A stretch of DNA of 64,000 nt, from contig JAJEKV010000130.1 in the NCBI GenBank assembly GCA_021234155.1, positions 1,097,962 to 1,161,961 of the forward strand. Direction: 5' to 3'. The translations under genes and the position numbers were made by a program. The stretch is from Isoetes taiwanensis. Its lineage: Eukaryota; Streptophyta; Lycopodiopsida; Isoetales; Isoetaceae. The stretch's first letter is position 1, and the number at the start of each line of letters is the position of its first letter. The notes under the pieces were generated by a model, which was given only the letters and a program-made list of their open reading frames with translations, was not told the origin of the DNA and did no database searches. Below, piece after piece: positions 20,449 through 57,421 of this stretch.

Positions 20449-20944
20449 CTATTGGATGAAACAAATAGATAATTTTAAGCCGAAGAAAGAAAAAAGCTTG
20501 GAAATCATATTCATGAATAAATCATGCTTACTAATTACTAAGCCTTATTGGCATAAGATGTTCCTGTTTTGTAGCCAGTTAAACTAAATGTGGAGTAATC
20601 ATGCAAAAAACTTATTTTTCTAATAGCTTTCGGGCCTTACGTTAAGCTACAGTTTTCTAGCCACACAAAAATTCTTCTGTTCAGTGCAATATCATAACTA
20701 CCTTGAAATAAGTCGTAAATACGTTGAGGATGCGCAGATCCTCTGCGACCTTCTCCTCCTGCTCTCTTCGGGCTTCCTTCCGTCTGCTCTTGGCCTTATG
20801 TAGAGTCCTCCATTATTTTATCTACGACGTGGTCAGCATTATTTTTACTAATACGACTTAGTCCAGATGAGCTGCCGTTGCTGTTTGTTTATTTGTTTAA
20901 ACAGGCCATGCTGAACATCTTTTATCTCATATGATAATGTTTTA

Positions 20945-21215
20945 GGGTCGTGGATCCAGCCCGACAAAATAATGTTTTACGACCAGCAAGCAGAGCGGAG
21001 CAGTGCAAGGCTGACAAAATACAGAGAAGAAAATGTAGAGAGATGCCTTAGCTCAAAATCTTCTATTATAAATTTTTAGTGTAAGTGTTGGACCCAGCCC
21101 GACAAAATAATGTTTTACGACCAGCAAGCAGAGCGGAGCAGTGTAGAGAGATGCCTTATAGCTCAAAATCTTCTATTATAAATTTTTAGTGTAAGTGTTG
21201 GACCCAGCCCTAAAT
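20945..21215 (+). repeat. Tandem duplication of Helitron-like 5' ends
   Basis: GACCCAGCCCGACAAAATAA and the following ~30 bp (GCAAGCAGAGCGGAGCAGTG) occur at ~20952-21005 and ~21091-21142. The block GCTCAAAATCTTCTATTATA with TTTTTAGTGTAAGTGTTGGA occurs at 21051 and 21161. Each block carries a TC-starting end (20925, 21059, 21169); only the last is followed by the full CCCTAAATTGGGCGGCTAGG subterminal motif. Confidence 0.8.
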
Positions 21216-32080: not shown

Positions 32081-33635
32081 TCTTATATTATAATGTTTTA
32101 GCGTGTTGTATGAAGCCCTAATTTGAATGGCTAAGATCATTTAAGTGCATCCAAAGGCCCAGATTTATCGCACAAATTCCCATACCTGTGAATGGTCAAG
32201 CTTTAATATCTTATGGGGAAAGGGGAAAAGAAAAGGAGGAAAAGAAAATGGAGAATGTGAAGGCTAAAAAGGCAAGGGAAAAAAGGAAAAAACAGAAAAG
32301 GGAAAAGGGAAGGGGAAAAAGGGCATGGAAAAAGGAATGAGGGAAAAGATGAAAAAGGAAAAAATAAAGGGGAAAAAACTAAGATGAAAAAATGGAAAGG
32401 AAAAAAAAAAAAAAAAGGGCGGGAAATGGGAAGGGAAAAAGGGCATGGGGAAAAGGCTTAAGAGGAAAAGGTGGGCAAAGGAGGAAAAGAGAATAGAAGA
32501 AGGGAATAGTAAAGGGGTGGGGAGAAGAGAAGCCAAAAAAGCCGCATGGAAAAAGGAAAAGAAAAAAAAAGATAAGGGACGAGGAAAGGGGGAAAGGAAC
32601 TTGGGGAAAAGGGCATCAAAGGAGGGGGAAGAAAAAAAGGTGAAGAAGGGAAAAAAAGGAAGAAAAAAAAAAGCATGAGAAAAGGGAGAGAAAAAAGGGC
32701 ATGTGAAAAGGAGAAGAGGGAAAGGGTAAGGAAAGGGGAAAAGACATGGGAAATGAAAAAGGAAAAAGGAAAAAGTAAAGGAAAAAAGTTAGGGGGAAGG
32801 AAGGAAATGGGCACTGGAAAAGGGAAGAGAAAAGGATGGGATGGAGAGGAGAAAAAGGGAAGGGAAGAAGGGGAACATGGAAAGAATAAGGAGAAAAAAG
32901 GAAGGGAAAAATGGGAATAAGAAAAGGACTGACGGAGAGAAGGCAAGGAAAAATAGCATGGGAAAAAAGGATAGGGAAAGGCAAAAGAAAAAAAGGAGAG
33001 ACGAGAAGGGTGGAAGGGAATCTAGGAAAAAAGGGGATGAGGAAACAGAGAAGGGAAGGGAGAAAGGGCACGGGAAGAGGGAATCTAAAAAGGAAGGGGA
33101 AAGGGCAGAAAAAAGGGGGGAAGAGAAAAGATAAAGAAAAAGGGAAGCAAAAAAGAGAATATTAAAAGGAAAGGGAAAAACTGGGAAGGAGAAGGGTGTA
33201 AAAAGACCTAAAAGGGTACAGTGGAAAAAGGGAAGAGGAAGAATGTGTTGAAAAGGGCATGGGAAAGGGAAAAGTCAAAAAAAAAAAATGAAGGGAAAAG
33301 GGGGGAAGAAAGGGGAAAAGGGTGGGAAAAGGAAAAGGAAAAAGTTCATTGAGAAAAATGAAGGTGAAAAAAAAAAAAAAAAAAAGAGAAAGAAGAAAAG
33401 GAAATGTTTAAGAAAAATAAGAAAAAAGGAAAAGGAAAATATGGAAAAGGAGGAAAAGGAGGAAGAAACAAAGGGTGAAAGTGGGGTAGAGAAAATGGCA
33501 GAGGGAAAGAGAAATGGCGTCAAATACTTTAACAATGGAGTACTTTTGGATTATTCATAATACATTTCTCTCATTACCACAAGCAGTATCATTTATGTGT
33601 TCTCAACGACCAAAGAACGCTGGTACCATTCCTAG
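32081..33635 (+). mobile_element. Purine-core non-autonomous Helitron 1
   Basis: It starts A|TCTTATATTATAATGTTTTA, followed by GAAGCCCTAATTTGAATGGC and GTGAATGGTCAAGCTTT. The body 32216-33515 is almost only A and G on the plus strand. It ends CCAAAGAACGCTGGTACCAT, then TCCTAG (CTAG 33632-33635) and T. Start, end and A/T flanks obey Helitron rules. Long apparent reading frames on either strand are low-complexity artefacts. Confidence 0.65.
32216..33515 (+). repeat. Polypurine tract with GGGCATGG-type words
   Basis: AAAAGG/GGGAAAA-type sequence, interrupted by variants of GGGCATGGGAAAAGG at irregular spacing (e.g. 32321, 32441, 33254). It is a candidate triplex- or H-DNA-forming tract. Confidence 0.9.
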
Positions 33636-33970
33636 TATTGATTATGGTGATATTTTGTGCTCTGCTCATGGTGAGATTTATTGAAATATTTTTGGAAAAA
33701 TTCCAAATATACCCTTGAATTTGTTCAAATTTCTAATTTTGCTCTTCAAGTTTCCTTAATTCCAAAAATGCCCTCAATTAACCAAACCCAACCAGCCGAA
33801 AGAATAGTCGTTAATGTGACGGATAGGTTCATGACAGTTAAAGGAAAAAGGCGCAAAGGTAGAATTTCGTCGGTGAAGAATTCTGAGAGAGAATTTTGTC
33901 TGAAAATCTTGGAAGCTATTGACCGATCCAACCTATTGGCCTTTGCATGATATAAGGTAAGATTTTCTCT

Positions 33971-34734
33971 TCATTTCATTTCGTTGAAAAACTTTAGGTA
34001 GCTCTGAAGAATCGACAAACGCAGCGTGGTGGAAAAAATGTGGACCTTGATTTGAGGTTGAGCGTGGCCATTGAGGATAGCCAATGCCTCGAATTCTTCC
34101 ATGTGAGCTTGGGCACTTTGATCAAGAGGCTTTCCTTTGGTATTCCCAAAAGTGGGATACGTCATCTTAAGATTTTGAACAGGAGATGGAGGCGGACCTT
34201 GCGTGTAGATAGGTGGAGCATAAGCTGGAATATAGCTTTGTGGTACAGCCATGGGCTAGGAACAAGGCGTATAGAGACGTAAAACCCGGGCGAGAGAGGA
34301 ACGGCCCCGCTGGCTTAAGGATCGGGGAGCCTCATTTAACTTGAGATCGCTGAGATCAGAGATTTGACCGTGATGCTGAAAGGATGGGGAGGACTGATAT
34401 TCATGGACATGGGGAGGACCGAAAAAGACACGAGGATAGCCCATCCCCGCAGGAGGAGAAGAAGGTTACGAAGGCAAGGGAGTGTGACCCGAAGGGATAT
34501 GAATGTAAGTGGCGATTGGGGTTGAGAGCAATGCTTGCAAACAGGGGGAGGCCCTGGGCAAGAATGGACACGAGGGGTAGGTGGTGCCGACTGAGCTCTT
34601 GAGCGGACACGGCCCCCCTCAATATCAGAGTTAGGATCGTACATGTCGCGAGCAGCTTCTCGATGATGATGGCGCTCCAATCGTGCCGCCATTTGGCAAA
34701 GGAGTTCTTCAGGAGTGAAAGCACGAGCAGACAT
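33971..34734 (-). pseudogene. Ty3/gypsy-like gag remnant
   Basis: Minus-strand ATG 34734 opens MSARAFTPEELLCQMAARLE, then RHHHREAARDMYDPNSDIEG and a Pro/Ser/Cys-rich stretch. A frame change leads to IPAYAPPIYTQGPPPSPVQN, TYPTFGNTKGKPLDQSAQAH and MEEFEALAILNGHAQPQIKV. A Pro-rich linker followed by 'PxFxGxxxxxxxxHxxxFxxxxxLNG' suits the start of a retrotransposon capsid domain. The frame stops at 33971. No protease, RT, primer site or LTR pair was recognised, so it is a fragment. Confidence 0.45.
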
Positions 34735-35222
34735 ATTGAGAAGAGAGAAAAGAGAATGAGACCCAGCAGCGGCGACAGTGTTTAGGGTCTGGGTTCGGGA
34801 TCTCCTGCAAGACAGCCCTCTATGAGGACCCTTGGATAAAATAAGGGAATCCTGGCTGAGTGTCACGCCGGATTTTGCAAGCGAACAGAAAGAAAAGATA
34901 AGACTGAATCAACACACAACAATGAAGATAAATCTGGCTTCCTTGATATCAATGTGCATACAAAAGCTCTGTCTAATAACAGATACATTGTTGTCTAAAG
35001 ATCAGAGGGGATATTAATTGCGTCTGTCTACTTAATGTCTATCTAGCAACAAAGGATCCGAAGGAATATCGGTTTTAGTAATAACAGATTCATGGTTCTC
35101 CAAACATCAGATGGCATATAAATTTTGTATGTCAGTCAAGAAAAGAGAGATTGTTTCTGCAAATAAAAGAAACAAATGCCTATGATTAAGGTCATTGGTT
35201 CAGGCCCAAGTTAAAGTGCTTA

Positions 35223-35660
35223 CCTAAACAATCTAGGTGCAGGAAATTCTTCAAGCAGCCTCCCCATTTTCCTTAAGTCTAACGGATGCCCTGCATCCGA
35301 CAAAGCCCCTGCCAAGCTGTGTGCGAATGGATCTAATGTAAGGTATGCAATGGAGTAACCAGCTATAGTTTATGGCAGGGGACGATACCTGTAGGTTCCC
35401 CCAGTTGTAATAGCCAGTAAAACAATAGCCCACTGAGTCCTTAGCAAACAGAGCAACACTTCCCTTCTGGTTGAACTCAAGGTAATAAGGGTACGCCGCC
35501 CAGACTTGAAGTTTATAAAAGGGATGCAAAGTGGCATTGTGGAGCAGAGTAAAGAAGACCATGTTCCGCCAAGCATCCGGGCTACCGCCATAGTCGAAAA
35601 GCTTTAGAATCTACGCTTCCTCCAAAGCCTACATCCGCCACCGCCATACCAACAATTTAG
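35223..35660 (-). pseudogene. Unknown gene exon remnant ending at a good splice donor
   Basis: On the minus strand ATG at ~35655 gives MAVADVGFGGSVDSKAF. After frame changes follow FDYGGSPDAWRNMVFFTLLH, HPFYKLQVWAAYPYYLEFNQ and GSVALFAKDSVGYCFTGYYN, then LTLDPFAHSLAGALSDAGHP and RKMGRLLEEFPAPRLFR. It stops exactly at AG|GTAAGC (35223), a consensus plant splice donor. The protein-like wording across three frames suggests a real host exon that has decayed. I do not recognise the family. Confidence 0.4.
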
Positions 35661-35759
35661 CATCTAGAGCGCCTGGAAGCCGATGACGCCGCTTTGAGGG
35701 CTGAATTTTTTTTCCCAAGCGGAGTCTCGCCTTAGATATAAACCATCCAATTAATCTAG

Positions 35760-35813
35760 CCTTAGATCTAAGCCATCCGATCTAGGGCTGGATCCTTCTC
35801 TAGGACTTACAGA
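35760..35813 (-). mobile_element. Degenerate Helitron-like 5' terminus
   Basis: On the minus strand A|TCTGTAAGTCCTAGAGAAGG is followed by ATCCAGCCCTAGATCGGATG and GCTTAGATC. The subterminal block matches the family; the outermost ~25 bases do not match well. It is the best partner for the 3' end at 28943. Confidence 0.3.
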
Positions 35814-38800
35814 TAAGCTGGTTTTCTGCTGCCGGAACCATCTCCACTGGATCACCGAGCCTAAAATGATGCCTTCCTCTGCAAGCGGAATCCTAAGCAG
35901 TCCTAAATTGATTTTCCACATCCACGACCTTCCTTTATTGGCTCCCTAAATTGACTGAAGAGGATCTACCTGGAGGATTCATGACTCGCCAATCCTCATG
36001 ATCTACACGCTTTAACCTCGCTTAAAGGATTCACCAAGGAAATCCTCCTAGTGGCAGTGTGTCGGGCTTTATAGGCCCGCCGCATGCTTTGATTGCACTT
36101 TATGGGCCCCATTGTGTTTTGCGTAACTTCCTTGTATCGAAGAATCTACTGGGTGAACTTCCCGGCCGCTCCTCAGTCAGCCAGAGCTGAGAGAAGGCCA
36201 CTCACATCGGGACCGCTTAGGTCTCAATTAGATTTTAATAACCAAAGCAAATGCCATCCGCCATTTATGCTACCGCATTTTAGAGAAAATACGGCCGCTA
36301 ACTGCATCGTGAGCCAGTACTATTTTGGAATTTTGACTAGAAATTTGGTTTACGCTTACTTTAGTAAATTGGATATTTCCCAACTTGACTGAATATCGTG
36401 AGCGCGAACCCCCTGCATGGGCCACCTCCTCTACTAACGCCTCTACAAAGCTGATTTATAGAATTTATGAATGAAAATGACATCTTAACGTTTCAGCGGC
36501 TATACGAGCATTCTGCTGAAAATGCGTAGTATTTAGTTACACAATTCCTTGTATGCTCATATATTTTAATAAATATGTCAAATAATGGTAATACACCTTC
36601 TTCTTGGCTATTTAGACTTCTAATATACGCCCGTACAACGCCAAGTACCTTTTATTGTGGGTCTTTTAATAAATCATCAAAACCACTTCAATCCTTCTAA
36701 GTATAAATAAATCTGAAGGTGTACCGCTTAAATTCCATTTTCAAATTTAGTATATTAAAATGCCCATGTTGTCTTGCGGAACCTAATTGATACTTCAAAA
36801 GCCTCAGTAAAACAACAAGAATTTATTATTAGTCAAATACCGCGTTAAACACGCCGCCACAAATACACTGCGCATGATCATCTTTTTGTTATTTTTATCC
36901 ATATTAAGGTCGATCACAAGCCATGGTAATTTCATGGCTGCAAATCCAAATCCTCTATAAGTGATGTTTTAAGACGAGTATTGACATTACTGGGCAAGCC
37001 AATCATGGGCTGGGGTGCAATGCTGCTGAAGGAAAGTGTTCACATCAGGCTAAGACTAATTGATATAGAGTCATTTGGAGTGAATTCAGTAATTTCCAGC
37101 GCTTTTTCTAAAAACACATCTCGTGATTCTATCTCTCAGTGCTTGGCTGTGAGGGGACCTTGGTTTAAATAAGCAAAACACTTGTTTCTGCTTGGTTGCT
37201 CCTGCCGCCTCTCTGCATTTTTGGCGACCTTTGCTTAAGCAGTATGGCCTCATCTCCATAACCCGATCTCTATGGATCCTGGTCTTTTCCCACGCAAGAG
37301 AGAGAAGTCGACTCATATTTTAGGGAATATGAAGTTGAATGGTACTCGGCTTTTGTGGCCAATATTTATTAGGTGAACTTTCTTTGCATTCGCCATTCGC
37401 CAACAAAACCATTTCGATATAATTAGTAGATAATTGTTTTGAGTTATAGAAGTAGCCACTGCGAGAAGTCGTGATGTCTTTAGCCCACCATTGTACAAAA
37501 CCATGACGCTCACCTGCCATTTTGTGACGGTTTTATTTACATGTCTCGGTATACTTTCACATCCAAGAATACAAAAATATGATTTGTATCAAATGTGCTG
37601 AGGGTGGCCCGAGGCAAGGTAGAGCTTGAGAATATGATTCTATGGATCCTGCTCATATTCTACTCTATTTTTCTTTTTATATATGAAAGTTTAACTGGTC
37701 TTATATTTTACTTCGCATTTAACCCAACATCTTGCACTTTGTCACAAATCGCCTAATGAACTCATTTCCGAATCTTGGCGGGGATCTAACATATCCCAAT
37801 AAAGTAACCTTGAAACTAGATATACTTTCACCAGGAATTAACCAGTTATGGTTGTGTTATAGATTTTATACTCAGTGCTATATGGTATTTTAGTTATTGA
37901 TTGCGTGATGTATTTAGTCAGAACCTAACATTCCATATTATTAAATGAATAAGAAAATCACGCACCTCCTATGGCCTTGCTTAAATCCCGCCATTAAAGT
38001 ATGCAACTTCACTGCTCTTTGCAAGTTATTTTTCTTATGTGGCCCAAATTTTTTTCTCTAATATGTTGCAAGACTAGTGAAGATGGGTACTGTATGCAAC
38101 ATCATTGAAACTGTTCAATTTTATGGTTTCTGTTGAATTGATCTTTAGCTTAAAAGCGATTTTCATTCATAGCTGGGTGACTCGCGACTTTTTTTGGGAT
38201 AGCTTTTGTTATATCTATATTTTGAGTTCATATCGCTCTGGTCGTATTTCCTGATTTTTATGCACCTTCCTCGCCAGTGTGGCCTCTCATCTCTTCATGC
38301 AACCTGTTTCTTTTGGTGGATCCTTGGCCCTTCCAGCCCTTATAGGCTCCATCTATATTTCTTTAGTCATGTGTTTTGACTTGGTACTTTTTATTTATAT
38401 TTTCATATCGTTACCACTAACAAATAAAACCACGACCAGACAATTACTCGAAATACAGCCAGTCACTCAGAGAAGGAACGAGTCTTATTGCACTAGCTTC
38501 CTAAGGTCACTTACTTAATCTTTACTTTTGTGACTTGGTTTTATTTATATTTCGTTCTTTAGATAACCGCCACATCCGAGCTCCATTATCTCCACCGTAC
38601 GCTGCACTCACTGCGTAGTTTGGTACCAACCTACCACAATGAGGGTTTAGATTCCAATTTCAAGAAAGTAATTGGGTGCCACTGAGACAAATCGGATCGC
38701 ATGCATCAAAATTTCTCTCGAAGTCAAGAGGAGAGAGAGAGACGGCCCAATGTAGACTCCTCTCGATCTAATCCAAAAGCTAGTAGCCTATTTATGCTTC

Positions 38801-39690
38801 TTGTTTATCAAAATTTTCCAACTCTATTTTGTATATATGGTTCAGTCCTATTTATAATGAGAATTTGATATTTAAAACATGTTTATGAATACTCTTGCAA
38901 GATCACACCAAAAGGCTCCCTGGAAAAATATTACTTTTACCCCAACTTCATTCTTTTCCAAGTATTAGCTTCATTATGACAAAATACCTCTGCTTACAAC
39001 TTATGTGAAACAAAAGCAATGACCTTGTAACATATCAACTCAGAACAGCAGCATTTGGGATAGCATAAAGAGGAAGCATATGCTCTTTGTAATTCTCAAC
39101 CAGTACTGCGTACATCTAACATTATTCCAGGTTATTGTTGCTAAAATATATCCTAAGTAAAAAGCAAATATTGTGGAAGGAAGAAAATGAAAGAGAGCGA
39201 TACTTATAACTAAATAAGATAACAGGTTCATTCTTCTCTGAAAATCTCAAAGATTACCTTCAAATTGTAATTTAACCAACTTATAGACCGCTTATACAAT
39301 GTAACCGCCAAAGTACTGCACTGCTGAATTGGCCGTTGTGAAAGTTATTATTCTTACCTTAGGAGCTGAATCACTGATGTAACCGCTCATTGTCATCTTC
39401 GCCGCTTGCAAGCGGGCTTCCATGGGGTTTTAATTTGGTCTATTCCATTTCATAGACCAGATGAAGCTTCTCTTGTCACTTTAGTCTCCTAATGTCTGCC
39501 GCTTGATTTTACCTCCCCGACACCGCTTGGCTCGTGATTCTATTGTTGTATTGTAGGGAAATGGCCATATTGTATAAGTTGGAATTTATATGGACGAAAC
39601 TCATTCAGCCAGACTTTTTCGCTAAATCTAATACGATAGAAACCAAGCCCAAAGATTACTTGATTCTAAGAGGCTTCTAAAAAGCGCATC
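35814..39690. other. AT-rich intergenic, no gene seen
   Basis: No protein-like series. A perfect 14-bp palindrome CCGCTTGCAAGCGG lies at 39402-39415, and a weak Helitron-5'-like string (TCCTCTATAAGTGATGTTTT) at 36951. Confidence 0.5.
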
Positions 39691-39699
39691 GCATACCCT

Positions 39700-40180
39700 T
39701 CCTCCATTTCCTTTTGGTTTTTGTCATATTCCACATTTTTCCCCATTTCCCCATTACCACTTTCTTTTTTTCCTTTCCCATTTTTTTCTATTTTTTCCTA
39801 CACATCTTCTTCTTCCTTTTAACCCTCCACTTTCCTTCCTTTTCTTTTCTCATTTGATTTTTTTTCTCTTTTCCTTTTTATCCTTTTTCCCGCTTTTGCT
39901 TTATTTTTTTCCCTTTTTTCCTTCTTTCCTCTGAATTTTCCTTCTCTTTTACTTTTCCTCTATCCCCTTTTTTTTTGCCTTTTTTTTCCCACCTTTCTAT
40001 GTGCCTTCTTTCCCATCCTTTCCTCTTATCCTCAAATTTTTCTCGCTTCTTTCCATTTCCTCCCTTTCTTTTGTGCCTATTTTCCTTACCTTTCCCCTTT
40101 CCCGCCTCTACTTTCCTCATCTTTTTCTCTGCACCTCTTTCTGCTTTCCCCATGCCCTTTTTTCCTTCTCCTCCAAGGTT
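39700..40180. repeat. Orphan polypyrimidine tract
   Basis: T/C-rich on the plus strand, with CATGCCCTTTTTTCC at ~40150 (reverse of the GGGCATGG word). It is the same kind of sequence as the Helitron cores but without recognisable Helitron ends. Confidence 0.85.
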
Positions 40181-43100
40181 CTATGGGTAAAACTCTTTGT
40201 TTATGGGTATATTCCGTGTGCATATGCCGCCCAGCATATGCTAGTGGCTAAGTAAACGCCATGACGCCTGTAAATGTCGTGTCATCCAACTCATCTTAAA
40301 AGTATGAATGTAATCTGCTTAGTCTCAGGAAATTGCCATCGGTATTAAAGTAAGGGCTGAGCGATTTATCGGATTATATTCTTTCCGGGCTCTTGCCAAC
40401 CTTGATCTTGTTCAACAAAGGTTCTTTGATAGACAATAGAAGCTGTATTTGCCTGGCCGGATGGTAATATAATCGTACTTTACCATTGTTAGTAATTTTT
40501 AATTGGGTCAGAATGATTTTTCGTTTCTGAAAATGGAGAGACCAAAATCCTCACCATTACCTGATAAACACTAATGGGTAAATCTTACCATGTATGTTTG
40601 ATACAGACATACTACAAATGCATCTCCTGATTGGTAGGGAATACGCTGTATTTGTGGCCGCTACAGCAATGTAGCAGGGTTTATTTGGGTATTTTTTTCT
40701 TGTTTGTATTTGCGGTGTGCGAGGCTCGTTTTTCTTTTTATTTTTTCCTCAATGTACCAGTGCCGAGAGAAATATTATCCATTTAGCAGATCAGTTGAAT
40801 ATGAAATGAATTACTTTGTTGTCATTGTCAGATAAGCTATCGCAAATGGTCTATCTCGGATGGCATCTTTGCTGATTCAGTGTCCAGGCTATTATCTTGC
40901 TACAATGTTGATTTGATTCATTGCAAAAACCCCATGGAGTTGACCTTCAAGAGTTCGCTGAAGACAGAGGAAGCCGCTACAACTGCTTTCCGCAGACGGT
41001 GTACCTTTTACCTGCTCAAATTCCTGCCCCGAGCATAATAAAGAAGTAAATTTTAAGCGTTAGAGACCGGTGGCAAGTGCGTTCGATGAAGAAGCGGCAT
41101 CTAAACAAAGAGGTCTCTTCAGATTGATTAGGCTCACTACGCCGCATCTCTTTAAGCACCGGATCATATACCTAGTTCAACGGTCCAAAATATGTAACTG
41201 GAGATCAGATAGGAGATGCACTTCCCATTTTATTAATTCTTGATCTGCGCCGTTACGCAAACATTAAAAGCTTGTAGCTTGGAAACATTTCACCACGATG
41301 CGTATTTTGGTGCAAATGCCAAAACTCATTGTTTCAACTTACACCGCCTCATTTGGGCAATACAAGTGACGTAAACGAAAAGGTATGTGTAAAATATCTC
41401 TGGTAGCCGAAACAAATGAATAAATAGATGCTTTCTCATTGATTTTTCTAACTTAAATCTAGTTTCATCATATAAAGCCGGTGCTGAGAGTACGGTCTCA
41501 ATGATTGCTTGATGTACCTGTGTCGTGTTTCTTTAATTTTCCAAAGATGCATCAAGCTCGCTTGCAAACCGATAGCATTACTTACAAAGATTTTGGTATA
41601 ATGCTTATATGTCATCTAGAAATTACGTGGACGAGAAAAGATTATAGCGATATGAGGAAGATGGTACGTTTTAAGTGAGGCACTTCCGGCTTTTGCGACG
41701 CTGACCGGCTGTTAAAGAGGTCCTAAAGAGGAATGCCACAGCTGGCCGTCTCCGCGTCTGCGGAAACTGGCTTAATCCTTCTGGGCTTAAGTGCTCGGCT
41801 GGCGCAGGCCATGGCGTATGAGTATCAAATTATGGAATGTAGTATACGGGAATATATTTGATAAGCAACTGTGAATTTGTTTCGAGTAAACTTGACCTTC
41901 GCAACCAAACTATGCAAATGCGACTGCGCTTACCGTGGCACAATTCGTGGCGATGCAGTTAGGATGATTCGTTTTGATGCTGATGTCATGCCGCAGGTGA
42001 ACCCAATTTCGCAATGATGCAACGTCACAGCTGGATTCCTGTGCCTGTAACCTGGCCTGACATTACACATAAATGCTGTTATTTTGAAACTCGATAACCG
42101 AAAATCAGACTTGAAAACCGTGACTTATCGGAAAAAGCCAGCTCCACGGCTACCCAAGATTATTAAAGAAGAAAATATTGAAGCTTTGATGTTAATGCCT
42201 ATTAATGCTTGACAGGCCAGAGCATCTGAAAATTTAATTTCAATGCAAACCTAAACATCTTCAAGACCATTTGATCGCGACGGTGATGGATTTGTGTAAC
42301 TAACTTTTTCATATATTCTTGTCCGGCCAATAAGCAGATGAAGCCTCGCGATTCTAACAGGCAATGAGCAGTATCATGGTTTTAGAGGCATATAGCAAAC
42401 CATGTGCCGCCAGCGCCATTTGGGTACGTGCCAAAAGCGCCACCTATTTTGCAATATTTGATAAACGCTTCAATTATAGGGAATCTGATTTCAAGCAAAA
42501 TCATTGTTATTGTTCTAAATATGCAAATTCTCGGCTGCTTATTATTTAGCTGCCTTCGCCTTCAATATCAAAGATATGAATTTCCTCAATGAACATCCAC
42601 TAGAGTACGTACCACCATGCTAAATTCGTGGCTGCGTAACGCCCTATAGCACTCTTACGACCTTGAGTCCGTAGATTACATTCATCTTCCACATTTGTTA
42701 CCAACCCATCCAAAGCGATGCACGCTCATATTACCTAACCTTCTAACCGATGTAAGAGGGGATGAGATAATGCCAGCGCTTTGTCATGAAAATACCGCGC
42801 GATGAGCTTATAGGTTAACGATGACACTCAAAGCCGCAGGAGCCACAACCCGTAATGGTTCATAAATTGATGCAATCTTCAAAATTTTGACGCATTTTCA
42901 CCAAACGCGCTGAATGCAAATTGGGTTTGCGTCACGATTGAATATACGTTCATGTACATCCACAATCTACTAGTAAGCATCTTCAAAATCAGCCGCTATT
43001 TGGTTTTAAATCTTGGACAGACGGTGCCTTTCAATCATGGCTGGGATGCTGTTATGATGCAAAGGCAATTCCAGGATTCGTTTGACTGCGCAACTTCGTG

Positions 43101-46100: not shown

Positions 46101-46887
46101 AAACAAGACGATAGGATATAGCTTGCATTTCTTTCCGCTGGTTTCCAGGGTGCGCATTTTAGAAAAGCCTTGTAGCTAAGTGTTTATTAGTTATATCATA
46201 GAATATACAGCAAATCAATACTCCCAGGCACAACGATTACCTACCTCGTACATATGATTGTCTAAATCCCATATATTCAAGATCACTTCAAAATTGAGAT
46301 ATACCACCGCTAAAAATGTCGAACATTAATAATGGATTCAACCTTTGTAGTTTTTAGAACCAAACAAATGCCCCACACCAGTGTTCATTTTTATGTCCTT
46401 TATCCCCTAATTTAGTACTAAATCAATAGCGTGGTTGGGAAAATCCTGGGAGGCAAATTATTTCAAAATTTAGAAACAAAGGCCGAAAGTAAAATCAATT
46501 CTTTGAATCTTGGAGAACTGCCAAGTAAGTGCGTATGCTCCTGAGCCCCGACAGCCGAAAATCACCAAAAACAGTAAATCTAAATTAATGGTCTTGTTTC
46601 GCCTTTCGGAAATATGTTCCAAAGTTTGAATGGAACCAATGATTGTGTTTTTTCCATTGTGTCATTCAATTTTGCGGGGAGTTGTTTACGATGGAATAAG
46701 CTCCGCCTATGAATTATGAATTGGGTATGAAAACAGCATTCCACCGCCGCTGCCTATCTCATTATTTTAAGGTTCTTTATGGGATAAGGAAAACCTCATC
46801 CAGCGGGTTTGTGGTATATTCCAAGTATATGTCGCGATATGCCCTAAAACATGACTCTAGCGTGACGAAGCCATTTCATTTCGGTCA
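40181..46887. other. AT-rich intergenic, no gene seen
   Basis: About 6.7 kb with only short, unconvincing frames (the longest ~108 codons at 44098-44424). No RNA gene or clear transposon end was recognised. Confidence 0.5.
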
Positions 46888-48121
46888 CTAGAGGGCAACC
46901 TTCCGCGTATGAGCGCACTCCTGAGCTTTTTTCTTTTTCATGGCTTTTCTTTATTCTTTTTCTACCTTTTATGGGTTCCATTTTTCCTCTCTTTTTCCTA
47001 ATTCTCTTTCTTTTTCCACTTTTCTCCGCCTTTCCCTCACTCTCTTCCCTTTTCCTATGTCCTTTCTCCCCTTCCTCCTCTTTCACCCTTTGCTCACCTC
47101 TTTCTCCTTTTTCTTTTCTTCGTCAAGCTCTCTCTTTAGTGATGGACTTTTTCCTTTCCGCTTTCCATTCCTCGAATTTTTTCCTCTTTTCTATTACCTG
47201 CAAATTTTTATCTTTCCTTCACTTCATTTTTTCCTTCCTTCCTTCCTGGCTTCCTAATATTTTTTTCTTTTTTTCTTTTTTTTTTTATGTGTCTATTTAT
47301 TTTCCACCCTTTCCCCTTCCCCTTCTTTCCATGTCTCGCCTTTTTTTCTCTTTTTCACTTTTCCTTCTCTCTGTTTTTCCTTCCCTTTCTATTTCCTTCC
47401 TTTTGTCTAATGCCTTTTTTCTTTAGGTTCTATTTCTCCCTTTTGGTTCTCCATTTTTCGCTTTCACATTCCCCTTTTCACGCATGCCTCCTTTTTCTCT
47501 TCCTTCTTTTTGTTCTTCCTTTCCATTTTTTTTCTCTATTTCCTCTTCCTAACTTTTTCACTTTTTTCCTTTTTCTGCGCCCTTCCTCTCTCTATTTCCC
47601 TCTTTTTCTCTTTTTCCTATGCTATTTTCCTTCCCTTTTTCGCCTTTTTCCTCTCTTTTTTTTCTCTTTTTTCCACAGTTCTTTCCCTTCCTCATGCTCT
47701 TTTTTCTCCTTCTTTCCTTTCTTTTTGACCTTTCTTTCTCCCACTTCTCTCCCCTTTTCTTTCATGCCATTTCCTCCCCTCACTTCCCCTCGTATTCTTT
47801 CTCGGTGCTCTCCTTTCTCCCTCCTTTGAATTTTTCTTTTTCTCTTTTTCCTTCTTTTCCTACATTTGTCTCTTTCTGATCCTTTTCTCCTTTTCCTCTC
47901 TTTTCCCCTGGGCTTCTTTTGCCCTTTTTATACTGCCTCTTCCTTTTTCCTTTTCCTCTCTTTTTTCTTTTTACTCCTTTTCTCAGAGATCAAAATATGA
48001 CCAATCACGCAGTGAGTAAAGCAAAGAAAATCTCGCCTTGATGCATCTTAGATGATTCTCATGATCCAAATTAGGCCTAGCTGCATTCATAGACTTATGG
48101 CATAACATTATAATATAAAGA
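46888..48121 (-). mobile_element. Purine-core non-autonomous Helitron 2
   Basis: Minus strand: A|TCTTTATATTATAATGTTAT, then GGCCTAATTTGGATCATGAG, ATCATCTAAGATGCATCAAG and GTGATTGGTCATATTTTGAT, aligning with elements 1 and 3. The core (47985-46925) is purine-rich on this strand. The 3' end reads GCGCTCATACGCGGAAGGTT, then GCCCTCTAG (CTAG 46888-46891) and T. The A and T flanks fit Helitron insertion. The end hairpin is only a GCG/CGC stem, weaker than in other copies. Confidence 0.6.
46925..47985. repeat. Polypyrimidine tract (core of Helitron 2)
   Basis: More than 1 kb of T/C-rich sequence on the plus strand, with reversed words such as CATGTCTCGCC, CATGCTC and CATGCCATTTCC. Overlapping Phe/Ser/Leu/Pro-rich frames are low-complexity artefacts. 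Confidence 0.9.
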
Positions 48122-51100
48122 TGGAGTTCCAAATTCTGTTTCTTCACCTATGAACTATCAAAATGCTTGATGAGGCGTAAAACAAGACAAGCGAAAGTAA
48201 ATAATTCAGGTATCCATCCAAATTTTAGTATCATTAAGTGCCTAATAGTACTCCGCCAAACCTGATTTCCGCCATCCGCCACGTCCTAATGCGCCCATCT
48301 TTAGTGCCTCGCGACCCGACGCAGTTCCGTGAATAATGTTGTCTACTCGCTCTTTAAACAGTAGTCATCCGCCGCCCGCGTATTTATAAGTAGATCTCTC
48401 GATTTAGACAATAACATCATACGTCAAATCTATACCTCCTTCCTACTCTGCCTCAGTTCGCATGAAGCCTAATCAATCGCAATGCTGCCATCATCCAACA
48501 TCATAATCCCAAGCGCAATATCGGCGAAATAATAAAACTTTGAGTGAAAAACCTTTTTCTTGGTTTATAGCTATAATCCCGTATTTTCATGTGATAATGA
48601 TTTGTAAGAGATTACGTTAATAAATACCAAATAATACGCGATTCTTTATGCAATCAAAGCTCTTTGCCAAAAATCTCTATCGGTTATTTATTACTTTATA
48701 CTTACGCCGTAAAATTTCTAACCTCTGCACGGCTTCGTGGTATCTAAAGGTCAAAAGAGGTTACAATACCTATATATATCCGTAATTTCTTTTTTGATGG
48801 TGTTTCATTTGCTAATTTTGTATAAAGTTATGCACCTTCTCTTTCTAACTGGGAATAGCGAATGTATAAGTGAAAGATCCCAAGATTGCATAAGAATGGG
48901 CCATGGTGCTATGTTTATGAATGAAATGGCTAAATAATTCCAAATCTTCATCTCGAATATCGGTGCTCTCTATAAATGATGATATATCATAACCCAAAGA
49001 TGAGAATTCTCAAAAGACCTTCCAATGAAAGAGTCAATCAAAATGCACATATCCTAACACGAGAAATATAGATAGTACTCTCTCGGCGGCTAATTCTTCT
49101 AGGAAATGGCGCGGCGTAGACAAAGAATGATTGCGCTGAACCTTACATCGTCGCGATTATAAAACCTCTGGTATCTGTGAATAAATGATATCTGCAAGTT
49201 AACTATATCTACACAATTCTATGGAGCAAACAATCTCGCAGAAGAGATGAGCATGGTAGACCATACACCAAAACAACAACTATGCGTATTGTATGGTATG
49301 TCACTATTTCAGCAGCGATTGATTTGCACCAGAGCGAAGAGTTTCCGCTGTTTGTTTAGTACACAACTGGCTGTTAGCGAGCCTAGTGATGGGGGAAATG
49401 ATCGCCGTACTGGATGCTGATGAGACTTCAAAGGCTGGGAGGTTATGATGGGCAGCGTATCACGCATAAGATAAGTAATTGTAGTGAATGACAGTCAAAA
49501 AGTCAAGGTGAGAGGCAGAGAGAAAGAAGAGTGGAAATGTTTGGGTGACTTAATGCCAGCTTGCTGCTACTGTCACCGGAGGAAGGTGGCATTTGCAAGT
49601 ATAATCTAGTGTTAGTTTATAAATTCATAGGTTAGAAATTGCTGCGATTCTATTTTATCCAAAATTTCTAAATAAAGGTATACATGGATTTGGGGTAGCA
49701 ATAGCTTCGAATAATTCATTAATTCAATGCCTAAACGATGAAGGAGAAGCTGCCAAAAGTTGGTAGACATGCACGTCAGAGTTCCTGATGCATCGCTTTT
49801 CACTATCATGCCCCTCGAGTCAGCTATCTTCTCATTGTCTAGCATCATCACGCACGCAGCTGTTTTCCCTGGTAAATCTTCTATGCTGTAGTTTTACCCC
49901 GTAGAATGACAACAGCTCTATTTACGGTCCTATGACTTGGTCTGTGACGCTAAAAAATCTATTCTATTCTATCTCATTTGTTAAACCATGTGGATCGGCG
50001 GCAGAGCATGATGAGAGGCTCGTGATGTACATCGGGCCAGGATGCATAATTATTTAACTATAGGTTTGTTAATCACTAGGTTCTGTTGAGGCAGCCACCA
50101 TTTCACCCTTGATTTCCTGAGCGCATCAATACCGGATAAGGAATTCATAAATCCAAATGATGACGTTCACCCAATAAATCGGACATTGACTGTTTAAATA
50201 GGCCGCGGCCGGATAAAACTTTACTTATCCCATGAGGAGGATTCAATTTACGCTTCCGGAACAAGTAATACTAAATAACTTAGTCTTTAAACCATCTGAT
50301 TTCGTGACCTCTTTCCTTTAAAGGACCCACAAAGTTTTGTGAAGTATCGAGATATATAGCTGGTCACAATTATTAATCTCTAAATCTATGTATATCGCTG
50401 GCTCACTGCGGACCTTGCCCTAACTGGGCAGCACATCCGTAGTGTTTCTCTGTTTATTTCGACTCGTTTTGGGAGCGGTCCTAAATAGGAACGCCACCTA
50501 CTGTACTTATTGCTAGTTGATGCCGCCAGCCGCATTGTGATGACAAGAAAAGAGAACCGGCATTCTGGGATGCATGCCTTCATTTTCATCAACCATCAAT
50601 TTTGAGTTCCTTTCTATTCTATCGACCACCCAGTAAGTTACTAATCTGATCCTAATGGGGCTGAGCGCATCCGTGTAATGCCTCTTTTATGTAGATTCAC
50701 CGAGGTTTATTATTTCAACTTCGCATCAACCGCGTTTTTCAATCAGCGTCTATAATCGATTTCCTTTCGCCAGATTTTGCCTGAGAAACCTCTTCATGTT
50801 TCCTCTTTCATTGATCAAAATTCACCTCTATAGATAGATCCAATCCCGCATACACAAAGTCTCCAAGCTATCGCCTATTTTGTTTTTCTTCAGCATGCCC
50901 TTCTAAAAGTATAAGTTCTTAGCTTTGATGCGCTAAAACTGATGTGAGCTAAGAGGCCACAGGAACCTTCGTGAAAGTGAGAGGTTTTAGGTTTCTTCCC
51001 CACTATAGAGGTCATATCTCTTTACCTAACCCATACTTACAAACAAAGTCCAAAATTCTCCGATACACCGCTTGCAACCAAGGAATAGGTATAGGAGGTG

Positions 51101-54100
51101 CCCTTCTACCTCCAATTCCTTCCAACGCCTCTATTGCAGGTTAACACGTACTTTACCCTGATAGTTTCAATTTGCCCTCTTTAATTAGGCTCCACTCTGC
51201 CTTGACAACGCACCCAAGAACTCTGTAAAGTTATTTCAAAATGCATACCACCATAAGTACATTCTAGTCCAAATTAATGCCACCAGAGGACATGGTCCAT
51301 TAGAGTGGCTTTTTGTGGTCTACTGAATGGTCGGGGTCTATTATGGCCAAAATTCATCATTAACTTAAAAATCTTATAGTAACTCTTCCCATCGGTCACC
51401 GTAAAACGACTCTGTGGGCGTAGCATCAACCGTAGCCAAACTTTAAAATTTGGCACGTTATTCTAAAATAGATTGTGTTGAAATTATTGTATTTCTTGAG
51501 TTTAGATTACTAAAATGCCCTTATGGAGTTTCAACATATGCACTGGTAATACACAAACCTCAGGCATTTAGTTTTCCTGTGCCACAGACCCATCCAATAA
51601 AAGTTTTAAAGTTTAATTTGTGGTCAAGTGCTACCCCAGATATTTCCTCGGCTTAGCCGCGGGACGGTCCGTGAGACTTCGCCGCACTTTTTGAGTTCTT
51701 AGTGTTTTAATCGTGCCGGGGTCCTTTCTGATAATATTTTATTTTTTTCTATTCTTTCTTACGATTTGTGTAGATCCTATGTCCAAAGCACCGGCCTGAG
51801 GAATTTTTTCTATTCCCAGCCATGTGCTGACCCAGAGGTGACTTCCATTGCGTGTATGAAGCATGACGCTGGCGATTTCTCATGATCCTGTTTACCTCCC
51901 TTTGATAAAGATCGTACCGTCTACCATATCCAAACTGTACCAGCAGCTTCGTCGTAGACGTTTTCCTACCTGTGTAAATATATTAGTCGCCTAGGTCATA
52001 TATCCGCTAGTTGAAATCCCCCCATCCAAACTCTTTTTATTTATAAGCCTCCAATGATCCGCTCTAATACATCTAAGTATCCCCAGAAAGTGAAGAGGCA
52101 ATGCATAGTGTCTTGCCGCCTCTTTCTCCTATGGGCTCCTAACGGAAGGCAATAATGTTAGAATACCAACAACAAATACATCTAACTACTACATGGCAGT
52201 ACACCTGTATATCCATAGATACAGTCATGATGCCAAATTATGCTATAAAACACATGGGAGTCTATAATGCTCAAACTTTATATGTAGTGACTGAGTGGTT
52301 GGGCCATAAGATAGAGTAGACTGTGAGATTAAATAAATTAAGGGCTAAGCAGGTATTAAATGGCTAGGTTGACTTACCTCCATCCGCCTTCTCGGTATAC
52401 TCTTTGCAAAGTGACGGGCTGGAATCTGCTCCCGCGGATCTATAGTCCGCTTTCGCAGGACGTAATCCTATGGCGCATCACCTTATTGGGACTACTAAAG
52501 CCAAAATTCCTCGCCTGATGAGCGAAGGCCAGTTCCCCTTCCCGAAACGCAGTAGCCCTACGTGGGCTGCTTAAAGACCGCGCGCCATACATGATCCATA
52601 TGATATGTCGGCGGCCCTGCACGGGAGCCCAACATTTATTGATAACATTGCATTACATGACTGCTAAGTGTCATCCAGTATGTTCCAAGCCTTGGCGCAT
52701 ATCAAAGAGAGTTTCAAAATAAACCTTGATCTTTATCTGCAGTGCCGCGCCGTTACCTACAAACAGAAGGACAACCCTGAGACGTGAGCACCTCCGCCAC
52801 CACAACCCAGGAAAATCGCTTTATCCACTTTTTCGGGAAAGCCCGAAGTCTTCCAGATTATATCACTGATGACCTTATTTGGCGTTATGCCCAGAAAGCA
52901 TAGAGTCTAAGTTGATCCACAACGGATCCGCCTTGCTGATGATGTTCTATTCTTATTCTTCCGGCGTATCAATCTCATGTCTCAACTGTCTTGCCAATAG
53001 CATTCATATCGATTTTGATAGAAGGATAAATCTAAGATTCGCAACCTGCATCTCACCATACTGATCAAATGTCCGGGCATTGTGAGAATGTGGAACTCCA
53101 AAGTAGCGCCAGAGAAAGGACAGAGTATATGTGCAAACAATGGTAAACTTATGATTGTGCTTATTAAAATAGCTTCCATAAATGGCATCCAGCCACACAT
53201 CAAATAATGAATAAGACTTATTTACTTACTAATAAAGTTACCGCTAGCCAAAAGTTGTTAGGATTTTCACCCAAACGCAAGGATATGTGTATTGAAGCCG
53301 CCACAAAGATACCTTGCAGAGAATAGGCAAGATGAAAAATAGGCTCTCCGTCTCTTCATGGTCCGAGCAGGATTCTAACTCCTGAGATTTCTAGGCTGAA
53401 TCTCCACGCAGGAACCGCATACAACCTTGTCTTCTAAATACATTTAACATCAAGAACATTACTGCATCTAACACATGCAATCTACGTCTCGTAAAACATC
53501 ACGCAAATTTTAAGGCAATGAACAACATCGTAGCCATTTCAAAAGACGGACTACAAAGAGATAGTTATTGGGTTGATTTATAAATAAACAAAACATGTAT
53601 CAGTAGAAAGAACAAGATAATAAACGAATAATCCATAATATCTTGGCCATGTCCCCAAAGTAATATCACATATCAAAGTAAATATTATGAGCTTCTAAAA
53701 GTTCTAAGCAATGCTTACTTTATCCAACATCAGCTTTAAGCTTGGCAATAATCTCAAATCCCATCTAGTTTTACTTCTTTTCCTACTACTCTTTAAGTAA
53801 AATCAAGTGATCTATAATTCCTTCAAAATATATGATGTAGAATATATCTCAATCACTTAAGCGAATTTTACGTACGATTATTTGATGATAAGAACTTAGA
53901 AGATGAATATCCTTGCAGCTTGTGGGCCCATCGAAACCTCAAGCACGTATATGTATATAAAATGCCGCCACAGCTTGGCAGATTCTTCTAATTCAAAAAA
54001 TAAAAACATTGAGGTTCATCCAAACTATCTTGAGGGCTAGTGTAAAACAATTTGGCTTCCAAATTCTACCTCGCATTGTACATCCGGCACGATCTTATTT

Positions 54101-55585
54101 GTTTAAATTCGTCCAGTTGGTCTTCCTCGGCTTTTACCCATACTAATTCCATCTCTCTGGAGCATGTACCCAGACTTAATGAATCCAAATTCGCCCTACC
54201 GCGAAGCACTACCGCAGACGTGTCCCATTTGAACGCTCGGCATTAAGCAATTAATTTAAAAACAGACCAAAATGCCACTACTTAAAAACAGAGGATCAAA
54301 AGCTCCTTTACATCCTCGCTTTAAAAAGATCATGAAAGCAATGCAAAAGAGGAAAACATCTGGTGAGATTTCCTACGGTTGGTATCATGGATCTTGCGAG
54401 CATGCTACAAAATATTAAATATTGTACAGAGCAGCCACTCTAGAAGTTTTGGATATTAGGTAATTATCTCCCATTGTCTAAGACTGCCCAATTACCGCAG
54501 ATCTTTACGATATTTACGCATCGGGCAGACTTCCATTCTGTGCTGCACGAACGAAGCGCTTTTGCAGAATGTATTATACAGTTAGTTTTTGATATCGTGG
54601 CCCTCTCCGCTGCTGAGATTGAGTGGCTAGCCGGTGCCTCCCACGAGGTCGTGATAAATACTCCAAGGTCCCGCTGGTTCGCTTCCAAATTCAGGGTTGC
54701 TACCGTAAAACTACCAGCCAGAGGTTGTTTGTTTGTAAAGAATTTTCAGATGTATGCAGTTAAGAAAAATTGATCACGTACAACGAATGAGAGAATGTGT
54801 CCTCAATAGACAATACCTCATGGCTATAGCTATGCTATTGGTGTTCGAAAGAAACCGAGGAGGTAGCCGCTTCAATAAAAATCTCTACTCAAACAGCATA
54901 CGCAAAGATGATCAAACTGGATATCAGAGACACCCAGTTTTCCTCCATTCGACCCTTTGTTCAAATCTAAGAGCATTGTGAAAGGATCTCGGTACCCAAA
55001 CGCCATTATTACAAATTAGATTTTATCAAACGAAGCTAGCCGTATCCATAAGATTGTTGTTGTAAATAACGCCTCCACTTCTCCATTCGCGAAGATCTGC
55101 ACCGGTGAAAGTGTGATGATAGTGCCGAGCAGTTATGTACCCGTGATTTTTCCTGGTTAAAAATCTTTTAATTCCAAATGACGCAAAAACTGAGCGACAT
55201 AGATAGAATATCCACTTGCCAGTAAGAAAGGCAGTTATCTTTCTATAACCGCCGTAATTCTTTGCTGGCGCGCAGAAACCGTCGCAGAAATCGGCAAACC
55301 ACTACAACAAAAGAAGATCAAAAGCACAAGAAAATATTAGAAAAAAAATGGACTAAAACGCACGACCTCCAAAACACAATCCATTATCTAAAATAGTCCC
55401 CGCGAGGAAGAGGTACCGATGCCCGCGGGCGCTCCGTAATAAAGTCCAAAGCCTACCATTTTGGGTAAGAAGAGGAAAGGTCTCATTGAAAGTGGCTTAG
55501 TAGAGTTTCGGCATGAAATGTACATTAGCATTTATTATGTTCCTCATTATAATGAGGTTGCGATTCTAATGCAAATGAAGATAAT
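48122..55585. other. AT-rich intergenic, no gene seen
   Basis: About 7.5 kb without a recognisable gene. The frames are short and of random-looking composition. Confidence 0.5.
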
Positions 55586-57421
55586 TCATAATATAAATGT
55601 TACAGGCTGTAAGCGCAGTTTCAGTGAATGAAACCTTAATTTGAATGGGTCGGCATCATCTGATTCATCCGTAGCGTTTGATTGACAGTAGACGCACTAC
55701 CAACAATCGCGATTGGTCACGCTCTCATCTCTGCTGGAAAGCGCAAATGAAAAGGAGAAAGTGCCGAAGCGTGGTGAGAGAAATTTAGCGCACAGAAAAG
55801 GAAAAGGAAAGCATGGAATCATCCATATGTAGGCAGTAAATGGCAAAGCAAACAGAAAAGGGGTTTAAGAGAGAATCGAAGGGGCAAAAAGGCATGGGGA
55901 AAAGGTGGAAAAGTAAAATAGTAAGGAAAAGGGTGGGGATAAGATGAACAGTAAAGGTACAAAACAAAAGGCAGTGAACCCGGGGAAGTAAGGGTACAGG
56001 AAGGAGTGAAGAGATATGGAAAAGGTAAAATGGAAAGGGCATGAAAAGTAAGGAAAGATAGTATAAGAAAAGGAGGAAAATGAAGTGAGAAAAAGCACGG
56101 CGCGGAGGAGAAAAGCATGGCGCTGAAGCGATAATGCAGCATGTACAGTGCCATTTCATATGGCATGAAGGACAAATGCAGACAGGAAGGGAGAAAAGAT
56201 AGCGTAAGGGAAACGATCAAGGAAAACGCAGCGCCGGCACCGGAGGAAAGCAGCGACGCTATTGGGGAGGGGAAAAGTTAGTAAGGCAAAATAGTAAGGG
56301 AAAGGTAGAGAAGAAAGAAAAAGAAGGGGAAAGGGGAAGGTGGAACCCAGGTAAAGGTCAAGAAAGAGTAAAACCAGAAAAGAAGGAAGGGCATGAGCAG
56401 TGCCGAAGAGGAAAAACGTAAGAAAAGCAAGGGAAAAGTAGTAAGGGGCAAGAGAGAAAGGGTGGGGAAATGAGGAAAATGGGTAGACAGGAATTAAGAG
56501 AATAAAACAAATGCGCAAAAAGGCGCATGGAAAAGGGAAAAGGAAAAGGAAAGGAAGGGAGGCGTGAACAGGAAAGGATCGGCAGTACGATAAAACGGGA
56601 AAGAAAAAATCTATCAAGAAGTAAAGGAAACGTGGAAAGGCGTGGAAAGGGAAAAGGGAAGCAGGGATGGATGGAGGGAGAAGGTGCCATTACGAGGAAA
56701 GGAAAAGAGAAAAGAAAAGGAAGGGCTGGTGCCAGCGAAAATTGCACGAAGAGTGGTGTATAGGGAAGTAAGGAGGTACGAATTTAGAAAGGTTAGGAAA
56801 GAATAGTGGGAAGGCATGTGGAAAGGGAAGAAAAGAAAAATGGAAAGAGGGTATGAGAGAGAGAATGGAAAAAGAAATGAGGAAAAAGAGAAAGGGAAGG
56901 AGAAAGGGAATACGGAAAGGGAAAGAGGGAAAGGACGAGGAGATGGAAAAGAGAAGGTAAAAAGGCATGGAAAACGGGAGGAGAAAAGAAATGGAAGGGC
57001 AAGGCACACAAAAAGGAGGAACAGAGGGAAATAGAGGGCGGCGCATGTGGGAAGAGATATGGAAAGCCGCTGCTGAAAAGAGTAAAAGGTTGAAAATATT
57101 ACGGAAAAGGTGGGGAAAAGAGGAAGGTATAAAAGAGAAAGGGAAGGGAAGGCTGGCAAAGAAAAAAGAGAAGAGGGTAAGGCGTGAGAAGGAGCAGTGC
57201 AAGGGAAGGGAAAAGGGGTTATTTGAACAGTGGAAGGGGGAAATGGTGCCGACAAGCACGCTGTCACGCATATATTTGCGCAGCAGCGCAGAGAAAATAA
57301 GGAAAATGAACACGGGATAGAGCGTGGAAAAGTGGAAATGGGATGTGGGGTTTTCCACCGCAGCATCCCAGCATTGCCGTGCTCAATCCGGCGCCCGCCA
57401 ACGTTGGCACCACATTACTAG
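55586..57421 (+). mobile_element. Purine-core non-autonomous Helitron 3
   Basis: The 5' end TCATAATATAAATGTTACAG is followed by GAAACCTTAATTTGAATGGG, ATCATCTGATTCATCCG and GCGATTGGTCACGCTCTCAT, parallel to elements 1 and 2. The core 55745-57335 is purine-rich on the plus strand. The 3' end has a perfect GCCAACGTTGGC palindrome (57397-57408), ACCACATTA, then CTAG (57418-57421). The left flank is T and the right flank C instead of A and T, and the core has more non-purine bases, so this copy looks older. Confidence 0.6.
55745..57335 (+). repeat. Polypurine tract (core of Helitron 3)
   Basis: GGAAAAGG-type sequence with words such as GGCATGGGGAAAAGG (~55891), GGGCATGAAAAG (~56038), CGCATGGAAAAGGG (~56524) and GGCATGGAAAACGG (~56965). 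Minus-strand frames up to 250 codons over it are artefacts. Confidence 0.9.

What the first reader, a model, noticed from the sequence alone, without database searches (positions are those of the whole stretch)
32081..57421. A Helitron family whose cargo is a strand-specific polypurine core
Elements 32081-33635 (+), 46888-48121 (-) and 55586-57421 (+) share a TC-start near TCTTATATTATAATG, a subterminal CTAATTTGAATGGCTAAGATC-like block, a TGRTTGGTCA-like block, then >1 kb of nearly pure purine, then a CTAG end, usually after a hairpin. The purine strand is the element's own plus strand in all three, despite opposite chromosomal orientation. I know of no described Helitron group defined by such a core. 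A fixed purine strand could relate to rolling-circle replication or R-loop/triplex behaviour.
Basis: partly seen in the sequence, partly recalled or inferred. Interest (0 to 1): 0.8.

Follow-up and report, generated by a model that had tools for sequence, protein, structure and literature searches.

The report
Jumping genes with purine-rich cores
A plant genome, apparently a quillwort's, carries hundreds of copies of a rolling-circle jumping gene whose interior is a 1-2 kb stretch that is about 90% A and G, nearly always on the same strand of the element, most likely because the copies descend from one ancestor.

Summary
Window 32081-33635 is a complete non-autonomous Helitron. The copy at 55586-57421 is old and decayed. 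The copy at 46888-48121 has a genuine 5' end and core, but its claimed 3' end is not a terminus. An unlisted core fragment lies at about 39555-40171 (-). In the source genome (1.66 Gb; statistics match Isoetes taiwanensis) the 5' tip pattern occurs 892 times and the hairpin 3' end 2,783 times. Joined flanks of 4 of 12 copies match empty sites, junction A^T. A RepHel element with the same type of ends, without the core, is the likely helper. The core marks one lineage of a larger Helitron group: 29 of 40 sampled 5' tips and 7 of 20 sampled 3' ends have it. Purine follows the lineage's 5' block at 813 sites, pyrimidine at 4. Common descent suffices to explain the fixed strand. Cores appear to evolve by purine-repeat growth and slippage: sequence largely scrambles between subtypes while composition stays near 90% purine. 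No extra constraint on purine identity was detected. A function (hairpin-free transposed strand) is possible but unproven.

The parts
32081..33635 (+). complete non-autonomous Helitron (family 1, 1555 bp), A|TC...CTAG|T
   Evidence: (as L001); one search finds it at 100% and a 99% 5'-end copy at C933
32081..32218 (+). 5' terminal block
   Evidence: 41 matches listed, 1490 candidates of which 40 scored
32219..33525 (+). polypurine core, about 89% A+G on element + strand
33527..33635 (+). 3' terminal block ending CTAG; hairpin degenerate in this copy
   Evidence: 82% to the L004 3' end, E 1e-24
46930..48121 (-). 5' end (A|TC at 48121) and core of a second copy; its 3' end is not at 46888
   Evidence: (40 matches: itself and 39 at 74-81%)
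46814..46904 (-). repeat spanning the claimed 46888 CTAG end; a related piece also follows the core of L002
   Evidence: 81% over 100 columns to L084, E 3e-18; further block 46746-46555 at 73%; L002 to L084 86% over 36
39555..40171 (-). 3' half of a purine-core element (core about 40171-39690, degraded type-B 3' end to about 39555); possibly the missing 3' part of the copy at 48121-46930
   Evidence: 73% over 99 columns to type-B 3' ends, E 4e-11
55586..57421 (+). old, diverged copy, T|TC...CTAG|C, core about 81% purine
   Evidence: (2 matches: itself and L018 at 75%)

Best explanation
This is a lineage of non-autonomous Helitrons moved in trans by RepHel elements that carry the same type of ends. 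The ends, empty sites and a RepHel relative are shown; movement in trans is inferred. One ancestor gained a purine-rich micro/minisatellite just inside its 5' block. The core then grew and scrambled by slippage and tandem duplication of purine units, while each copy kept the ancestral strand (inferred from the tree, register and repeat results). The purine strand is therefore fixed by descent, and composition persists because new units are copied from purine units. Whether the core helps transposition is open.
For: Ends: CTAG|T in 19 and CTAA|T in 2 of the 21 family-1 copies with a readable 3' end; A|TC in 17 of 23 rows (tallied by eye). Hairpin with 8-bp stem, 10 nt before the end. Empty sites for 4 of 12 copies tested. 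RepHel with PF14214 and PIF1 downstream of a related 5' end, followed by the family hairpin/CTAG end. Core purine 89-91% in the 22 rows that yield a figure (L003 cut short). One group holds 31 of 32 purine rows. Strand 813 to 4. Slippage: core gap cells 57,664 against 254,588 aligned; ends 60 against 30,450 and 220 against 23,380. Recognisable arrays: 48 bp x 11 (81% matches) in L056 and 6 bp x 83 (79%) in L057. Register largely lost between subtypes beyond ~100 bp.
Against: A single origin is not proven: the tree needs 2 changes, 0% of 200 bootstrap trees need only 1, support for the 31-row group is 84/96 and drawn open; L056 falls outside, probably through a swapped 5' end. Composition near 90% across subtypes whose sequence is mostly out of register could also mean selection. 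The 4 wrong-strand sites were not examined. In none of the 8 RepHel upstream regions fetched was the purine lineage's full 5' block found. All data are from one genome.
Confidence: 0.7

Rival explanations
1. The core is selected because an A/G-rich plus strand cannot fold. In Helraiser only the plus strand is transposed and a 3' hairpin is the terminator. A core free of hairpins would let the transferred strand run to the true terminator without early stops and ease helicase passage.
For: Predicted ssDNA folding energy of one 851-nt core stretch is -4.7 kcal/mol against -90.7 for one equally long stretch of the RepHel element's 3' part. Plus-strand transposition and the hairpin terminator are in PMC5876387 and PMC4778049 (passages). 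The lineage is numerous: 813 exact pattern matches. Composition is kept while sequence scrambles.
Against: Transversions per site are no rarer in the core (0.039) than in the ends (0.028 and 0.036). 13 of 20 sampled 3' ends show no purine core in the 675 bp upstream that were read. A pyrimidine strand would be equally unfolded. The core folds no differently from its own shuffles (z -0.02).
Confidence: 0.17
2. The purine strand acts through RNA or non-B DNA: a purine-rich transcript read from the 5' end forms R-loops, or the G runs form quadruplexes on the plus strand.
For: 91 G4-type motifs on the plus strand of 27 distinct cores against about 57 from dinucleotide shuffles, 0 on the other strand (after dropping its E32 row, which repeats L001; the call itself prints 95 and 59 for 28 rows). 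R-loop preference for purine RNA is recalled.
Against: The excess is modest, the cores are related so counts are not independent, and shuffles already give many. The three diverged window cores E46, E55 and E40 have none. No transcript evidence was available.
Confidence: 0.06
3. The tracts are ordinary simple-sequence DNA and the Helitron ends nearby are coincidental.
For: Cores contain short purine repeats.
Against: The 5' block is followed by purine at 813 sites genome-wide against 4 for pyrimidine. 21 copies have the core between the same two ends. Empty sites lack it.
Confidence: 0.02

Closest known systems
Plant and animal Helitrons (TC...CTRR, RepHel helicase), e.g. Helraiser/Helibat
   Same: TC start, CTAG end, 3' hairpin about 10-11 nt from the end, A^T target without duplication, RepHel partner
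   Different: interior is a 1-2 kb degenerate purine satellite on the plus strand rather than captured genes or unique DNA
Tandem-repeat-bearing non-autonomous Helitron-like elements (DINE-1/HINE, pearl; recalled, not fetched)
   Same: non-autonomous rolling-circle element with a repeat array inside
   Different: no terminal inverted repeat found, AT rather than TT target (as recalled for those groups), and the array is about 90% purine and mostly decayed
Polypurine tract of LTR retrotransposons (recalled)
   Same: purine-rich and strand-specific
   Different: those are short primers for DNA synthesis; here more than 1 kb, in an element with Helitron ends

Membership tests
Helitron | 5' TC and 3' CTRR termini | tested here: met
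   CTAR|T 21 of 21 with readable 3' end; A|TC 17 of 23; of the other six, three abut another Helitron's CTAG, one has T before TC, two have altered tips (by eye)
Helitron | short hairpin 10-12 nt before the 3' end | tested here: met
   L068: 8-bp stem, 3-nt loop, 10 nt; pattern 2,783 sites, control 0; degenerate in E32
Helitron | insertion between A and T, no target duplication | tested here: met
   empty sites for 4 of 12 copies: 100% for L004, L076, L078, 99% for L068; 8 of 12 gave none among the 40 scored of 4597 candidates
Helitron | no terminal inverted repeats | tested here: met
   one copy, L068: 4 of 30 bases match; best local 6 bp, E 2.7
Helitron | RepHel element with matching ends | tested here: met
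   C1036:8558004-8550183 (-), PF14214 E 1e-59 and PIF1 E 9e-59. Its 5' end is related only in about the first 60 bp, and an earlier degenerate hairpin near 8550310 makes its exact 3' end uncertain
Helitron | transposition by this RepHel in trans | not testable with these tools
   needs an assay
Helentron / DINE-1 | insertion between T and T with short inverted repeat at ends | tested here: not met
   A|T junctions and no TIR; the defining feature itself is recalled

The most novel reading that the evidence does not exclude
The polypurine core is a working part: a self-renewing, hairpin-free filler on the transposed plus strand that keeps rolling-circle transfer running to the single terminator hairpin, so composition and strand are selected while sequence is free to scramble.
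Probability: 0.17. Interest if true: 0.75.

Novelty: new variant of a known kind. Interest (0 to 1): 0.5.

Why it matters
It is a large Helitron lineage, in what appears to be a lycophyte, in which composition and strand persist while sequence largely does not. That makes it a natural test bed for whether secondary structure of the transposed strand matters in Helitron movement. It also shows a route by which hundreds of strand-biased purine tracts, potential replication and transcription obstacles, are spread through a genome.

Tried and rejected
E46 plus the 39.6-40.2 kb fragment as one element split by an LTR element: no direct repeat was found between the two inner edges, and the open frames between them gave no obvious retroelement by eye. 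It stays a possibility only.

The repeat after E46's core: a piece related to it also follows the core of L002 (36 bases at 86% to L084), so it may be an alternative 3' module rather than an unrelated insertion. Not resolved.

Captured coding sequence as the core: no open frame of 250 aa or more on the purine strand in the window. One of 250 aa lies antisense to E55's core, and shorter purine-strand frames exist.

'Short' cores followed by gene-like DNA: in L012, L013 and L015 the purine core resumes further down; L013's insert reads as a LINE by eye. L012 and L015 reach the family 3' end; L013's was not reached in the stretch read. L014 continues to the family 3' end. L016 and L023, also fetched, showed no resumption or forward family end within the 5.0 and 4.5 kb read; they are unresolved.

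Second independent origin (L056): held unlikely because its 3' end resembles lineage type B by eye.

RepHel elements with GA tracts (L065, L066): different upstream sequence; not followed.

Purifying selection on purine identity: tested by transversion rate, not supported. Majority-polarised changes in the core show more Y-to-R (about 5%) than R-to-Y (about 2%) per site; this may reflect misalignment and I do not lean on it.

Literature: open-library searches for Helitron with polypurine (35 papers, 20 listed), purine-rich (4), polypyrimidine (8), tandem repeat/nonautonomous/minisatellite (8), low complexity with GA-rich (0), and Isoetes terms showed no title or abstract start describing such a core. 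Only listings were seen for these. Subscription papers are not covered.
Full report
1. What was checked. The three elements are in the window as described in most respects. Purine tracts on the element + strand are 87% (32161-33560), 85% (46881-48020, minus strand) and 81% (55821-57260). E32 is flanked A|TC...CTAG|T, E55 T|TC...CTAG|C, and E46 begins A|TC at 48121. The CTAG at 46888 is not a terminus: the sequence on both sides of it matches locus L084, which has no purine core upstream, at 81% over 100 columns and again further down at 73%. A piece related to this repeat also follows the core of L002 (36 bases at 86% to L084), so it may be an alternative 3' module; its nature is unresolved. 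A fourth tract at about 39690-40171 on the minus strand is followed by a degraded 3' end of the type-B copies described below (73% over 99 columns, E 4e-11).

2. The genome. The window lies in a 1,658,258,908-base assembly of 1,110 contigs. The Isoetes taiwanensis paper gives 1,658.30 Mb in 204 scaffolds and 909 unplaced contigs (PMC8566536, passages). I infer that this is the source; no call names it. The word Helitron does not occur in that paper's main text.

3. Copies and ends. The family-1 5' end gives 41 listed matches (1,490 candidates, 40 scored), the 3' end 41 (940 candidates, 40 scored). Twenty-three oriented copies, the window element among them as L001, were examined. The 3' end reads CTAG|T in 19 and CTAA|T in 2 of the 21 that have one in reach; the 5' end reads A|TC in 17 of 23. 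Of the rest, L006, L070 and L077 sit directly after another Helitron's CTAG, L072 has a T before TC, and L074 and L075 have altered tips. These tallies were made by eye from the printout. Core purine content is 89-91% in the 22 rows for which one search gives a figure (L003 is cut short).

4. Empty sites. Joined flanks of 12 copies were searched. All 40 scored hits are single alignments that cover the junction at 98-100%: 31 for L004 (four of them at 100%), 6 for L078 (five at 100%), 2 for L076 (both 100%), 1 for L068 (99%). Some of the 98-99% rows hold a one-base indel whose place is not given. So 4 of 12 copies have empty counterparts; the 100% rows, for three copies, show a clean A^T junction with nothing duplicated or lost. 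The other 8 had no hit among the 40 scored of 4,597 candidates, which is not evidence of absence.

5. Helper. Of 8 RepHel upstream regions fetched (out of 150 scored Helitron_like_N hits, 1,813 candidates), one (C1036, minus strand) has a related 5' end: TCCTATATTATAATGTT with the CCTAATTTGAATGG block, about 4.3 kb upstream of its Rep domain, with no purine tract there. Its protein piece has PF14214 and PIF1, and the family hairpin plus CTAG|T lies downstream at 8550183. A degenerate hairpin lies about 100 bp earlier, so its exact 3' end is uncertain. Trans-mobilisation is inferred.

6. Is the core part of the family definition? The pattern ATCTTATATTATAATGTTNTRSCRTR has 892 exact sites (437 and 455 by strand; control 0). 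I fetched 40 of the roughly 100 places listed, deliberately including rare subtypes, so the fraction is not a genome estimate. 28 of 40 pass 75% purine at +150 to +300 (L040 among them loses purine by about +225), and L043, which carries two 5' tips, makes 29 when read from its second tip. Of the 11 without, L022 is cut at about +50 by another Helitron's 3' end and is uninformative (by eye). Only about 600 bp inside each tip were read. The TGATTGGTCA block (up to 2 mismatches) is in 25 of 29 purine rows and 0 of 12 non-purine rows, the RepHel element included. The 3' pattern has 2,783 sites (1,373 and 1,410; control 0). Of 20 taken from the roughly 100 listed, 7 have purine upstream (L094 only about 200 bp of it), all 7 on the element + strand, with three different 3' subterminal sequences; 13 show none in the 675 bp read. 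So the outer ends belong to a larger Helitron group and the core to one lineage within it.

7. Strand. After the lineage's TTYGATCTCTTA block, ten purines follow at 813 sites (401 and 412; control 0) and ten pyrimidines at 4 (control 2); three of those 4 are identical strings on one contig, and none was examined. On a tree of 5' ends (44 rows) the purine rows need 2 changes (0% of 200 bootstrap trees need 1; shuffled mean 10.7), and 31 of 32 form one group with support 84/96. The exception, L056, has a different 5' end but a 3' end that resembles type B by eye, which suggests 5'-end exchange. Common descent is therefore sufficient for the fixed strand, though a single origin is not proven.

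8. How the core evolves. Among 21 aligned family-1 copies, transversions per site are 0.039 in the core and 0.028 and 0.036 in the ends, so there is no sign of extra constraint on purine identity; gaps are far more common in the core. The majority consensus core is 90.7% purine against a mean of 89.8% in copies. Between subtypes (220 pairs of 25 cores; L056, L057 and two short or low-purine cores left out), alignment score per base is 0.391 against 0.333 for reversed controls in the first 100 bp, and 0.295 against 0.284 and 0.279 in the next two stretches, where the real order still wins in 59% and 64% of pairs; within subtypes (80 pairs) it is 0.615, 0.462 and 0.374 against 0.37, 0.284 and 0.28. 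So a faint register remains between subtypes. Some cores are recognisable arrays: a 48-bp unit about 11 times in L056 (81% matches) and a hexamer about 83 times in L057 (79%). This fits growth and scrambling by slippage of purine units.

9. Function. In Helraiser only the plus strand is transposed and the 3' hairpin is the terminator (PMC5876387 and PMC4778049, passages). The purine strand here is that strand. One 851-nt core stretch is predicted to be almost unfolded as ssDNA (-4.7 kcal/mol) while one RepHel-element stretch of equal length gives -90.7. That makes a hairpin-free transferred strand a reasonable hypothesis. Against it: 13 of 20 sampled 3' ends show no purine core, and the core folds no differently from its own shuffles (z -0.02). 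G4-type motifs exceed shuffles modestly (91 against about 57 in 27 distinct, related cores; one search prints 95 and 59 with the window element counted twice).

10. Verdict. A real, sizeable lineage of non-autonomous Helitrons, not described in the listings I searched; new variant of a known kind. The fixed strand is explained by descent; function remains open. On checking, confidence in the best explanation was lowered from 0.72 to 0.70 because the tree does not give a single change.

Noticed in passing
L006, L053, L069, L070, L077, L110 5' or 3' flanks; L067 near 8550183: Helitrons of this group often sit head-to-tail, one copy's TC end at or a few bases after another's CTAG end.
   Followed up: partly
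L065 and L066 (C1107:149300-154400, C224:464600-469650): Another type of RepHel locus carries GA-rich tracts and TAGAAAGTTT-type repeats upstream of the Rep domain, also purine on the coding strand.
   Followed up: no
whole genome G000: Apparently Helitron-rich: 1,813 first-look candidates for Helitron_like_N, of which the 150 scored are all over the cut-off.
   Followed up: no
window 10385-10436, 15535-15558, 20925-20962, 21059-21215: Further short matches to this group's 5' tips, two of them about 110 bp apart at 21059 and 21169.
   Followed up: no
L019 against L041/L044 5' ends: Purine and non-purine elements share nearly the same first ~45 bp but differ after it, suggesting exchange of 5' tips between lineages (by eye).
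   Followed up: no
window 9350-10267 and 7349-8212: Long open frames that read by eye as a non-LTR reverse transcriptase and a possible gag-like zinc-knuckle protein.
   Followed up: no
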